Below, one piece after another: positions 46,917-50,873 of a DNA stretch of 64,000 nt. The first letter of the stretch is position 1. Every line of letters starts with the position of its first letter. The notes below the pieces were generated by a model that saw only the letters and a program-made list of their open reading frames with translations, was not told where the DNA came from and made no database searches. The translations under genes and the position numbers were made by a program. This stretch comes from Allochromatium tepidum (GTDB taxonomy: Bacteria; Pseudomonadota; Gammaproteobacteria; Chromatiales; Chromatiaceae): the NCBI RefSeq assembly GCF_018409545.1, contig NZ_AP024563.1, positions 2,316,001 through 2,380,000 of the forward strand, read 5' to 3'.

Positions 46917-48742
46917 GCCAGAGCGAGACAGCGAAGATCACGACCATGAGCGAAACCAACAAGATCGGCGTCATCCGCGACATCAACGGTCCCATCGTTA
47001 CCATCGAGCTTCCGGGCGCGCGTAGCGGCGAGCAGGTCAAGATCGGCGAACTCGGGCTCTATGGCGAGATCCTCTCGCTCAACGGCGAGCGGGCGGTGGT
47101 CCAGACCTATGAGTCGACCGATGGGGTGCGGCCGGGGGAGCCGGTGGTGGGGCTGGGCCGGCCGCTGTCGGTCGAGCTGGGGCCGGGGCTGCTGGGCGGC
47201 ATCTTCGACGGGGTGCAGCGTCCGCTGACCAAGCTGGCGCTCCAGTCGGGGGATTACATCCGGCGTGGTCTGAGCGTGCCGGCGCTCGATCGCACCAAGC
47301 TCTGGGTGTTCGAGCCGAATGCGGAGCTGGAGCCTGGGGCCAAGGTCGGGCCGGGGACGGTGCTCGGGCGGGTGCAGGAGACGCTGACCATCGAGCATCG
47401 GATTCTGGTGCCGCCCGGCGTCGAGGGCGAGCTGGAGGAGATCGCGCCGGCGGGTGAGTACGATATCGAGTCGAATATTGCGCGGGTGCGCGATCATCGG
47501 GGCGTGAGTCATCGGCTCAGCCTGTATCAGCGCTGGCCGGTGCGTAAGCCGCGTCCGTATCTGAAACGCGATGATGGCGTGTCGCCGCTGATTACCGGGC
47601 AGCGGGTGATCGATACGTTTTTCCCTCAGCTCAAGGGGGGCAAGGGCGCGGTGCCGGGTCCGTTCGGGGCGGGCAAGACCGTGGTTCAGCAGCAGATCGC
47701 GCGCTGGTCGAATGCGGACATCGTGATCTATGTCGGCTGTGGCGAGCGCGGCAATGAGCTGGTCGATGTGTTGGAGACCTTCCCGGAGCTGGACGATCCC
47801 TACTCCGGGCGCAAGCTGATGGAGCGGACGCTGCTGGTGGCGAATACGTCGAACATGCCGGTGGTGGCGCGCGAGGCGTCGGTCTATGTCGGGATCACGA
47901 TGGCGGAGTATTACCGTGACATGGGCTATGACGTGGTGATGCTGGCGGATTCGACCAGTCGCTGGGCCGAGGCGTTGCGCGAGGTCTCGGGGCGGCTGGG
48001 GCAGATGCCGGTGGAGGAAGGCTATCCGGCGTATCTGGCGTCGCGGTTGGCGGCGGTCTATGAGCGTGCGGGTCGGGTGGAGACCTTTGGGGCGGGGTCG
48101 GGTTCTGTGACCTTGATCGGGGCGGTGTCGCCGCCGGGAGGGGACTTCTCGGAGCCGGTGACGAGTCATACCAAGGACATCATCGAGACGTTTTGGGCGT
48201 TGTCGAAGGAGTTGGCGGATGCGCGGCATTATCCGTCGATCGATTGGGTGACGAGCTTTTCGGGGCATGTGAAGACGGCGGCCGAGTGGTGGCACAAGGA
48301 GATCGATCCGGATTGGGAGAAGCGGCGCGGGGCGGCATTGGCGTTGCTGGCGCGGGATGCGGAGTTGTCGCGGATCGTGAATCTGGTGGGGCCTGAGGCG
48401 TTGTCGGATGCGCAGCGGTGGGAGTTGGAGGGGGCGTCGTTGATCAAGGAGGGGGTGTTGCAGCAGAGTGCGCTGGATGAGATCGATACCTTTTGCTCGC
48501 CGGCGAAGCAGTATGCGTTGCTGGATCTGGCGATTACGATCTATAAACGGGGTGAGGCGTTGGTCAAGCTCGGGGTGCCGGTGACCGAATTGCAGCGTCT
48601 GCCGTTGCTGGCCAAGATGCGGCGGATCAAGTCGATGTATTCGAGTGAGCAGTTGGAGCAGATTCAGGCGTTTCGGCAGGAGGTCGATCAGGCGATGGAG
48701 GCGATACGGATTGAGTATGCGAAGCAGGGGGGGGCTGTTTAG
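46913..48742 (+). CDS. V/A-type ATPase catalytic subunit A
   Basis: The 609-residue catalytic subunit has the bulge domain and P-loop GPFGAGKTVVQQQIA, GCGERGNELVDVLETFPEL, SRWAEALREVSGRL and SYVDTF-type SALDEIDTFCSP. ATG 46913 overlaps the E stop; Met 46949 is the more typical beginning. From about 47100 to the stop, synonymous choice switches to G-ending codons (GGG, TTG, GTG) unlike its neighbours, and the gene ends in an eight-G run. The island insertion begins directly after its stop. Confidence 0.96.
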   Translation: MSQSETAKITTMSETNKIGVIRDINGPIVTIELPGARSGEQVKIGELGLYGEILSLNGERAVVQTYESTDGVRPGEPVVGLGRPLSVELGPGLLGGIFDGVQRPLTKLALQSGDYIRRGLSVPALDRTKLWVFEPNAELEPGAKVGPGTVLGRVQETLTIEHRILVPPGVEGELEEIAPAGEYDIESNIARVRDHRGVSHRLSLYQRWPVRKPRPYLKRDDGVSPLITGQRVIDTFFPQLKGGKGAVPGPFGAGKTVVQQQIARWSNADIVIYVGCGERGNELVDVLETFPELDDPYSGRKLMERTLLVANTSNMPVVAREASVYVGITMAEYYRDMGYDVVMLADSTSRWAEALREVSGRLGQMPVEEGYPAYLASRLAAVYERAGRVETFGAGSGSVTLIGAVSPPGGDFSEPVTSHTKDIIETFWALSKELADARHYPSIDWVTSFSGHVKTAAEWWHKEIDPDWEKRRGAALALLARDAELSRIVNLVGPEALSDAQRWELEGASLIKEGVLQQSALDEIDTFCSPAKQYALLDLAITIYKRGEALVKLGVPVTELQRLPLLAKMRRIKSMYSSEQLEQIQAFRQEVDQAMEAIRIEYAKQGGAV

Positions 48743-48879
48743 AATTTTTCGCTTGGAGGCTAAATTTGCGCGACCTAGACTGCTTTCAGTCTAGAAAGCT
48801 TAGCGTTCCATTGCAATCTAAATACACTGTTAGGCTTGGGATTTTCCAGCTAACGACTAAAGCAAATTGGAGGATACAC

Positions 48880-49259
48880 ATGACTAAAATTATTCCTGAT
48901 TAGTTACGAAGCTCAGCACATTCACGCTCACTGTAATTCATTGTTTTTATGAAATTATTTTCAGCCATCTGAGTTTGTGCCAGGTACGCTGGTCGTCTGC
49001 GCTGACTTGGAGGCCGCGCTTAGGTGGTCAGAGATTGACCGGGCAAGAGAAAACAAAAACTTGGCCTGAGAGTTCTCGCACCGCAGTGCTGAGCTTCGTA
49101 ACTAATCAGGAAATTATTTGTTCATTATGCCATGGGCGTGGGGAAGATGTTGAAGTGCCTTGTCCCGAATGCGGAGGCTCAGGCTATGATACTCTTCATG
49201 AGAACCCATTTGCTCAATGTGATGAATGCTGTGGAGAAGGCACGATAAAAGTCGATTGA
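48880..49259 (+). pseudogene. Small CxxCxGxG zinc-finger gene split by a MITE
   Basis: A very good ribosome site (GGAGGA, 5 nt) leads to ATG ACT AAA ATT ATT, after which the MITE 48895-49110 brings a stop within three codons. Removing the MITE and one 8-bp target copy restores a 51-residue frame: MTKII joined to CSLCHGRG, CPECGGSG and CDECCGEG, three DnaJ-type zinc motifs, ending GTIKVD. The downstream part also remains open through the MITE from a TTG at 48975, so a fusion product is conceivable. Function is unknown. Confidence 0.8.
48895..49110. mobile_element. 216-bp MITE with 25-bp perfect inverted repeats
   Basis: The ends 48895-48919 and 49086-49110 are perfect 25-bp inverted repeats starting CCTGATTAGTTACGAAGCTC. 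Both flanks carry the same 8 bp AAATTATT (48887-48894 and 49111-49118). The interior has no gene. A related single end lies at 32155-32177. The parent transposase family is not identifiable from the ends alone. Confidence 0.9.
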
Positions 49260-49279
49260 ACGCATCCAGGGGGCTGATC

Positions 49280-49531
49280 GTGATTAAAATTCTTGAGGCA
49301 AACTATTTGGGAGACGGATGCCTGGAATTGATTTTTTCCGATGGCATGAGAGGGATTTTTAACGTATGGGCTTATTGCTCTAGTCGGAGCGGCCCCTTGC
49401 TCGAACCGCTCGCATCAGAAACCTATATCAAACGTTGCTTCATCGACATGGGCGCTCTCGGATGGCCCAATGGATTGGAGTTATCTCCGGCACGTCTTTA
49501 TGAGCTTTGCGAAATGAAAGAGGCGGCATAA
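49280..49531 (+). CDS. DUF2442-type small protein
   Basis: The 83-residue protein begins at GTG 49280 with AGGGGG upstream. It reads IKILEANYLGDGCLELIFSD, then a central GPLLEPLASETYIKRCFID and a C-terminal ELSPARLYEL, the DUF2442 pattern. DUF2442 genes are often paired with DUF4160 partners in what look like toxin-antitoxin-like cassettes; no partner is present here. The base composition is AT-richer than the ATPase genes. Confidence 0.75.
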   Translation: MIKILEANYLGDGCLELIFSDGMRGIFNVWAYCSSRSGPLLEPLASETYIKRCFIDMGALGWPNGLELSPARLYELCEMKEAA

Positions 49532-49648
49532 TGAAACAAAATAGGGGGCAGACCTCTATTTTCTACAAACCGCATCGATCGCGAAAGATGTACTTTGCAA
49601 GCTCACCGCATCCTACGATTCTAGTAAATATGACATGAGGAGGATGGC

Positions 49649-50125
49649 ATGGAATGGAGCCAGGTTTTGCAAGACCCTGTACTCAAAGAGCTTCCATATA
49701 AAATCGAACTCAACGAGGACGGCAATATCGTCATGAGTCCGGCGTCGAACCTGCATGGTTACTTGCAATCCCGACTCGTCATGGAACTGGCAAAAAAGAT
49801 CGACGACGGCGACATCCTGGTTGAGACGAGCATCCAAACATCCAAGAACGTCAAAGTAGCGGATGTATGCTGGGCGTCATCTCAGTTCATCGAAAAATTT
49901 GGATTCGAGACGCCTTACCCGAAAGCCCCTGAGCTGTGCATCGAGGTTCGATCGCCCAGCAACACCGACAGAGAGATGAACGAGAAAATCGAACTCTATC
50001 TTGCCAAGGGCGCTCTGGAAGTGTGGATTTGTGATAGCGAAGGGCTGGTGAGATTTTTCTGTCATGAAGGCGAAATCGCGGAATCTGGGATTGTCCCTGG
50101 ATTTCCAACACATATTCGCGTCTGA
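49649..50125 (+). CDS. Uma2-family (DUF820) predicted nuclease
   Basis: The 158-residue protein shows the restriction-like fold signature: IVMSPASNLHGYLQSRLVME, VADVCWASSQFIEKFG and PELCIEVRSPSNTDREMNE with the D..ExR/K site and LYLAKGALEVWICD. Uma2 proteins are PD-(D/E)XK-like, common in cyanobacteria and purple bacteria, with no established role. Excellent ribosome site GAGGAGG. Part of the island in the ATPase operon. Confidence 0.85.
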   Translation: MEWSQVLQDPVLKELPYKIELNEDGNIVMSPASNLHGYLQSRLVMELAKKIDDGDILVETSIQTSKNVKVADVCWASSQFIEKFGFETPYPKAPELCIEVRSPSNTDREMNEKIELYLAKGALEVWICDSEGLVRFFCHEGEIAESGIVPGFPTHIRV

Positions 50126-50181
50126 TCAGACAACAACAAATCACATGAATCAATTGCAACAAACTGAACAAGCGGCGTGAT

Positions 50182-50478
50182 TCAAGATTGTTCGCGCAGC
50201 CGAGAAAGCGCAATGTCGTAAATTTCATTGCGATCACGTTTGCCGACTGCGACAACTGTCACAGTGACAACCTTATCCTCGACGTAGTAAACCAACCGAT
50301 AACCGAGTCGGCGGAGTTTGATCTTGTAGATGTTCTTGGCACCCGACAGAGCCGCCGCAGGAACATGAGGATTTTCAAGTCGTTCTTTGAGTTTTTTCTT
50401 GAATTGCTCTTTTACGGTGTGGCCTAAATTTTGCCATTCCTTGAGCGCGGACTTTTTGAATTCCAGTTCATAGGTCAT
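50182..50478 (-). CDS. relE: RelE-family toxin
   Basis: The 98-residue protein has RelE/ParE features: YELEFKKSALKEWQNLGHTV, KIKLRRLGYRLVYYVEDKVV and TVVAVGKRDRNEIYDIA. RelE proteins cut mRNA in the ribosomal A site. It overlaps the antitoxin gene by 11 bp. It is encoded opposite to the ATPase operon, as the last module before subunit B. Confidence 0.93.
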   Translation of the reverse strand: MTYELEFKKSALKEWQNLGHTVKEQFKKKLKERLENPHVPAAALSGAKNIYKIKLRRLGYRLVYYVEDKVVTVTVVAVGKRDRNEIYDIALSRLREQS

Positions 50479-50716
50479 CGAGTGTCACCTTGACAGCTGG
50501 CTCATCCAGGCGCTCTTTGACGATTTTCAACAGTTCGACATCATCGATCAGTTCCATCATGGCTTCGTAAGCGGCGGCGGGCACACAGTAAAAAGCGGGT
50601 TCATTACGGTTCAGAACGGCGATCGGCATACCCTGCCCACTGGAAACTACCTTCATTGGATTGGCCTTGAGTTCGGATATACTGGCCGCGATTTCTGTAA
50701 GCACTTGATATGTCAT
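50468..50716 (-). CDS. Antitoxin of RelE (Phd/YefM-like)
   Basis: The 82-residue protein starts MTYQVLTEIAASISELKANP and continues GQGMPIAVLNRNEPAFYCVP, the Phd/YefM DNA-binding fold, with a C-terminal acidic helix (VKERLDEPAVKVTLDDL) that binds toxin. Upstream codons to 50740 are unlikely to be used. Confidence 0.9.
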   Translation of the reverse strand: MTYQVLTEIAASISELKANPMKVVSSGQGMPIAVLNRNEPAFYCVPAAAYEAMMELIDDVELLKIVKERLDEPAVKVTLDDL

Positions 50717-50873
50717 GATATTTATCCAGATAACAGCCAATGAAACCAGATTGTAGGTCTTTCAAATGGTCTCGTAAAGGTGATGACCGCCGTCTCCCGT
50801 TCAACGCCTTATCGATACCCGGCATTCGGCATGACCAATTGCCCAAGCGTCTAGAGGTCGAGATCCAAAGCTC

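What the first reader, a model, noticed from the sequence alone, without database searches (positions are those of the whole stretch)
48880..49259. MITE insertion with a perfect, reconstructable empty site
A 216-bp MITE with 25-bp perfect inverted repeats and an exact 8-bp target duplication (AAATTATT) sits between codons 5 and 6 of a small gene. Deleting it restores a 51-residue protein with three CxxCxGxG motifs and a strong ribosome site. The signature is fresh: no mismatches in the repeats or the target copies.
Basis: seen in the sequence. Interest (0 to 1): 0.6.

Follow-up and report, generated by a model that had tools for sequence, protein, structure and literature searches.

The report
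A hitchhiking mini-transposon and its driver
A tiny gene-less jumping element has landed in an already shortened small gene of a purple sulfur bacterium; the same genome carries the full-size element that moves it, and two hybrids that combine one end of each show the pairing directly.

Summary
In detail: 216 bp (48895-49110), 25/25 perfect inverted repeats, exact 8-bp duplication AAATTATT. It is a real mobile family: five uninterrupted copies in this genome (four identical, one with one change), one copy split by an insertion sequence (IS), and an 89%-identical copy in Thiocystis violacea. The matching transposase was found: a 1035-bp IS1595-family element in 12 full-length copies. Two hybrids (1087 and 1207 bp), each one end of the mini-element plus the whole IS, each flanked by its own perfect 8-bp duplication, show that the transposase accepts the mini-element's ends. 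A natural empty site exists in T. violacea (207 bp continuous, 88%). One correction: the '51-residue protein' is not the native product. Intact relatives are 84 and 85 residues, with a fourth CxxCxGxG motif and an acidic tail; the window copy was also cut at its 3' end by a junction into a dhiT toxin-gene remnant. The gene is hit twice and almost certainly dead. Kind: a type II MITE of the IS1595 family, known in outline (a 165-bp one is in print for Haloquadratum). The IS/MITE hybrids are the most useful part.

The parts
48869..48874 (+). ribosome-binding-site-like GGAGGA of the interrupted gene
   Evidence: sequence
48880..48894 (+). first five codons (MTKII) of the interrupted small CxxCxGxG gene; now reads MTKIIPD then stop at 48903
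48887..48894 (+). left target duplication AAATTATT
48895..49110 (+). 216-bp MITE of the IS1595 type
   Evidence: identical in three other copies in this genome
48895..48919 (+). left terminal inverted repeat, 25 bp; 23 of 25 identical to the left end of the 1035-bp IS, 19 of 25 to its right end
49086..49110 (-). right terminal inverted repeat, 25 of 25 identical to the left one
48953..49069 (+). 38-codon frame fragment inside the MITE core (no start codon of its own proven); only convincing matches are other MITE copies and the T. violacea copy
49111..49118 (+). right target duplication AAATTATT
49119..49259 (+). codons 6-51 and stop of the interrupted gene; truncated at the 3' end compared with relatives
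49250..49287 (+). remnant of the 3' end of a dhiT-type (DUF4160) toxin gene, whose junction supplies the stop codon of the 51-codon frame
49280..49531 (+). DUF2442 gene (dhiA-type antitoxin) left without its toxin gene

Best explanation
A non-autonomous 216-bp MITE is moved in trans (cut-and-paste or copy-out; not distinguished here) by the transposase of a coresident 1035-bp IS1595-family element that recognises the shared CCTGATTAGTTACGAA-CTCAGC ends and makes 8-bp duplications at A/T-rich WANNNNTW-like sites. In the window it landed in a small zinc-finger-like gene, probably laterally acquired, that was also fused, by a separate junction, to the tail of a dhiT gene. Shown: family, ends, duplications, partner IS, IS-MITE hybrids, empty site in a relative. 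Inferred: that the IS transposase is active today, the transposition chemistry, and that the interrupted gene makes no functional product.
For: MITE copies and flanks. IS: 12 full-length copies at 99-100%; transposase matches NF033547 IS1595 at 1.5e-59, PF12762 at 2.3e-29 and PF12760 at 3.8e-18. Trans-mobilisation: at C1:1588682-1589940 the IS sits inside a MITE with its own duplication CATTGTTT, the outer MITE keeping TATCACTT. At C1:2074067-2075153 the 52-bp MITE half plus the IS is a 1087-bp unit flanked by AAGATATA. At C2:43337-44543 the 172-bp half plus the IS is a 1207-bp unit flanked by TAAATCTT. The first pairs a MITE end with the IS left end, the second with the IS right end. The 1087-bp hybrid also shares the C-to-T change of the split MITE. 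Empty site: 207 bp continuous at 88% in L051.
Against: Two of the five uninterrupted MITE copies (C2:175142, C1:408915) have no matching flanks (3 and 4 mismatches of 8), unexplained; a search for a clean empty site of the second among 8 genomes did not resolve it. No activity was measured. No other strain of this species was available, so there is no empty allele within the species.
Confidence: 0.93

Rival explanations
1. The MITE does not kill the gene: its right half is open in frame with codons 6-51 and supplies a new N-terminus (in-frame GTG 49086, TTG 49035, TTG 48975), so a fusion protein is made.
For: The frame is open from 48900 through the right TIR into the gene.
Against: I saw no Shine-Dalgarno-like sequence close to these starts on reading the sequence; no promoter-like site on the + strand in the scan; the 3' third of the gene is missing anyway.
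Confidence: 0.06
2. The MITE is an internal-deletion derivative of the resident 1035-bp IS (type I MITE).
For: Ends agree 23 of 25 with the IS left end. True IS deletion derivatives do exist here, such as the 225-bp element at C1:2436121-2436345.
Against: Outside the terminal 24 bp nothing beyond a 9-bp chance match aligns with the IS; both MITE ends resemble the IS left end, and the IS right end differs from the MITE end at 6 of 25 positions.
Confidence: 0.05
3. The 216 bp is unique host DNA and the repeats are chance.
For: None found.
Against: Multi-copy with independent flanks and a continuous empty site in T. violacea.
Confidence: 0.005

Closest known systems
IS1595-family MITE partnered with ISHwa6 in Haloquadratum walsbyi (table row in PMC3852290, passage read)
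   Same: Partner of the IS1595 family, 25-bp repeats, 8-bp duplications, copy number 7, small size.
   Different: 165 bp, in an archaeon; I did not compare sequences. No IS-MITE hybrids were mentioned in the passages I saw.
ISApl4 (IS1016 group of IS1595) and its pseudo-compound transposon Tn7560 (PMC12561309, abstract and passages read)
   Same: IS1595 family, A/T-rich 8-bp duplications, two directly oriented IS copies moving a segment between them, as in the IS-291bp-IS unit here.
   Different: 712-bp IS, resistance cargo, no MITE-end hybrids in the passages seen.
MITEAba12 and MITEPye1 (PMC6382973 and PMC11578231, passages read)
   Same: Bacterial MITEs whose proposed driver is inferred from shared ends; type I/II distinction.
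   Different: MITEPye1 is tied to the IS1182 family, MITEAba12 to ISAba12; in the passages seen the drive in trans rests on end similarity, whereas here TSD-flanked hybrids show it more directly.

Membership tests
MITE (non-autonomous mini-element) | Small (about 50-500 bp), terminal inverted repeats, no transposase gene | tested here: met
   216 bp, 25/25 TIRs, no transposase frame
MITE (non-autonomous mini-element) | Multiple copies with target duplications | tested here: met
   Three of five uninterrupted copies plus the IS-split copy have perfect 8-bp TSDs; two do not
MITE (non-autonomous mini-element) | Mobilised by a coresident transposase | tested here: met
   By genomic footprint only: two TSD-flanked IS-MITE hybrids; no assay
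IS1595 family (partner IS) | IS1595-type transposase with N-terminal zinc ribbon and ISXO2-like DDE domain | tested here: met
   NF033547 201 bits (cut-off 75), PF12760 and PF12762 above cut-off
IS1595 family (partner IS) | 8-bp target duplications | tested here: met
   one IS copy (C2:70517) differs, on inspection only by the length of a T run
IS1595 family (partner IS) | Subgroup assignment (e.g. ISPna2, IS1016, ISNwi1; names partly recalled) | not tested
   No ISfinder access
Type II MITE (ends only shared with the IS) | Similarity to the IS confined to the TIRs | tested here: met
   Only 24 bp at each end align
DnaJ-like small CxxCxGxG protein (interrupted gene) | Above Pfam gathering score for PF00684 | tested here: not met
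   23.0 bits for the 51-aa joined frame, 27.5 for T. violacea and 30.1 for E. roggenkampii, cut-off 32.7; resemblance only

The most novel reading that the evidence does not exclude
Nesting of an IS in its own MITE acts as an end-swapping step: it yields new, larger autonomous elements with one IS end and one MITE end (1087 and 1207 bp), carrying MITE DNA as cargo. A MITE without a gene can thus become a terminus of a live transposon, and the transposase tolerates a MITE end paired with either of its own two non-identical ends.
Probability: 0.75. Interest if true: 0.45.

Novelty: new member of a known kind. Interest (0 to 1): 0.32.

Why it matters
In the papers I read, bacterial MITEs are tied to a driver because their ends look alike. 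Here the genome itself records the pairing: two duplication-flanked hybrids use one end of each. That gives a clean, non-pathogenic system for asking what an IS1595 transposase requires of its ends. The correction about gene length also matters: an exact empty site is not proof that the gene was whole before the insertion.

Tried and rejected
Rfam scan of 48700-49700: no match. Promoter/terminator scan: two weak promoter-like sites, both on the - strand, and no terminator. MITE against plasmid and phage collections: no match. Protein search for the MITE core frame: apart from MITE copies, only matches at E 0.018 or weaker, taken as chance. Flanks of the TSD-less copy M4 and of the IS-split MITE in 8 relatives: conserved on one side or interrupted, no clean empty site. 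Plasmid searches with L002 and L006: no informative empty site. An all-against-all comparison of flanks for swapped partners of the TSD-less copies: no identical pair. RNA fold of the MITE is strong (-88.9 kcal/mol, z -6.3), but the TIR stem alone explains much of it, so I drew no functional conclusion. An attempt to confirm the species through a paper gave nothing decisive.

Rows left out of the 18-element flank count: the two IS copies inside the IS-291bp-IS unit taken singly, and the IS copies inside the two hybrids taken singly (no matching flanks, as expected); the 225-bp deletion derivative (6 mismatches of 8); and the IS fragments at C1:667697, 1454966 and 1730864, which are not full-length.

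Full report
What is there. The window is base 2316001-2380000 of contig C1 of a two-contig genome (3.21 Mb plus 176 kb). The only plasmid record similar to a stretch of its smaller contig is Allochromatium vinosum pALVIN01, so it is a Chromatiaceae genome, probably Allochromatium; the species was not established. At 48895-49110 lies a 216-bp element with inverted repeats identical at 25 of 25 positions, flanked by AAATTATT on both sides. It splits a frame after codon 5; the left piece now reads MTKIIPD and stops.

It is a mobile family. A search of the own genome found the same 216 bp, uninterrupted, at four other places (C2:30417, C2:175142, C1:408915, C1:1364558); three are identical to the window copy and one differs at one base. 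A sixth copy is split by an IS, and two more places hold only one half of the element joined to an IS. Among 210 genomes of the family only the own genome and G058 have it. G058 has the match at contig 102, 7206-7423, the same numbers as in Thiocystis violacea DSM 207 scaffold0102, so I take G058 to be that strain. The T. violacea copy is 218 bp, 89% identical, with its own duplication TGCGAACA and again 25/25 repeats.

The driver. Ends of the same type (CCTGATTAGTTACGAACCTCAGC) belong to a 1035-bp element present in 12 full-length copies at 99-100% identity, plus fragments. Its 315-aa protein matches the IS1595 transposase model (1.5e-59) and the IS1595 zinc ribbon and DDE domains. In the 18-element comparison (17 from the own genome, one from T. 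violacea) 15 have identical 8-bp flanks, against 0 of 918 mis-paired comparisons. In the 15 duplications position 2 is A in 12, position 7 is T in 11, and position 8 is A or T in all 15. The exceptions are two MITE copies (3 and 4 mismatches) and one IS copy, where the left flank AACTTTTTTTT against AACTTTTTT on the right looks like a change in T-run length.

Direct genomic evidence that the IS moves the MITE. At C1:1588682-1589940 an IS lies inside a MITE: the IS has the duplication CATTGTTT within the MITE and the MITE has TATCACTT outside. Elsewhere the two halves of this nested structure are found as separate units, each with the whole IS and each with its own perfect duplication: 52 bp of MITE plus IS (1087 bp, AAGATATA, C1:2074067) and 172 bp of MITE plus IS (1207 bp, TAAATCTT, C2:43337). 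Simple deletion of half of the nested structure would not leave identical 8-bp flanks at new sites. In the first unit the outer ends are the MITE left end and the IS left end; in the second, the MITE right end and the IS right end. The first hybrid also carries the single-base change (CATTCATG) of the nested MITE. So the machinery pairs MITE ends with either IS end. A third product, two IS copies with 291 bp between them, occurs at C1:1956828 with one duplication per IS, and again at C1:2067565 with an outer duplication TTGTGTTT: a composite transposon that has moved.

Origin of the MITE. Beyond the terminal 24 bp nothing but a 9-bp match aligns with the IS, so it is a type II MITE in the sense of the review PMC10969869 (passages read). 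The core holds a 38-codon frame fragment with no convincing relatives outside the MITEs.

The interrupted gene. In L051 (G058) the region is continuous: 207 bp, 88% identical, crossing the insertion point without a gap. This is a natural empty site, and it includes 54 bp upstream of the start. But the gene there is 84 codons long, and a homologue on an Enterobacter plasmid is 85 (annotated 'molecular chaperone DnaJ'); both go on into a fourth CxxCxGxG motif and an acidic tail. In the window, similarity to L051 ends near 49256, and from 49250 the sequence follows the end of a DUF4160 gene that stands complete before the DUF2442 gene in G004. DUF4160/DUF2442 is the dhiTA toxin-antitoxin pair (PMC8198452, passages read; NCBIfam DhiT 75 bits, under its cut-off of 100). 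So the window gene was recombined into the dhiT position, losing its last third. Which hit came first cannot be told. A full-length match of the small protein was found in 2 of 146 family genomes, the own and G058; the matches in 27 other genomes lie mostly in frames of about 380 residues, as expected for DnaJ itself. In a class-wide sample of 369 genomes only the own genome showed the small gene (2 of 369 had any match at 1e-6, the other in a 377-residue frame; G058 was not among the matches and, by the tally, apparently not in the sample). Lateral acquisition is therefore likely.

Rivals. A fusion protein using in-frame starts in the MITE is possible but poorly supported. A type I origin from this IS is not supported. 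Chance repeats are excluded.

What is known. An IS1595-type MITE of 165 bp with 25-bp repeats and 8-bp duplications is tabulated for Haloquadratum walsbyi (PMC3852290, passage read). Movement by compound structures is in print for IS1595 (PMC12561309, abstract and passages). For hybrids with one MITE end and one IS end I ran two searches of the paper library and saw no description in the listings; subscription papers are not held, so this is weak evidence of absence. Verdict: a new member of a known kind, with an unusually clear record of its partnership.

Noticed in passing
window 49250-49531: A dhiA-type (DUF2442) antitoxin gene stands without its dhiT toxin gene, of which only the last codons remain; G004 has the complete pair.
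   Followed up: partly
window 48743-50873: Between two A/V-type ATPase subunit genes (609-aa and 460-aa frames) sit accessory genes: the dead CxxCxGxG gene, DUF2442, Uma2 and, on the other strand, a ParE/Phd-type pair. G004 has a similar but different set there, so the spot looks like an exchange hotspot.
   Followed up: partly
C2:70517-71551 (L030): An IS copy sits between cas1 and a CRISPR-like repeat array; A. vinosum pALVIN01 has the site without the IS. It may separate the array from its leader or adaptation genes.
   Followed up: partly
C1:2067565-2069925 (L031) and C1:1956828-1959188 (L032): Two directly oriented IS copies with an identical 291-bp segment between them; the second locus looks like the birthplace (one duplication per IS), the first like a transposed composite copy (duplication TTGTGTTT).
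   Followed up: yes
C1:2436121-2436345 (L025): A 225-bp internal-deletion derivative of a related IS, a second type of mini-element, without a matching duplication.
   Followed up: partly
C2:175142 and C1:408915: Two MITE copies identical to the window one lack target duplications; no swapped partner was found.
   Followed up: partly
plasmid collection: Homologues of the small CxxCxGxG protein occur in 463 plasmid records, mostly Klebsiella; in the one region opened it lies near genes annotated as an AAA ATPase and ParB.
   Followed up: no
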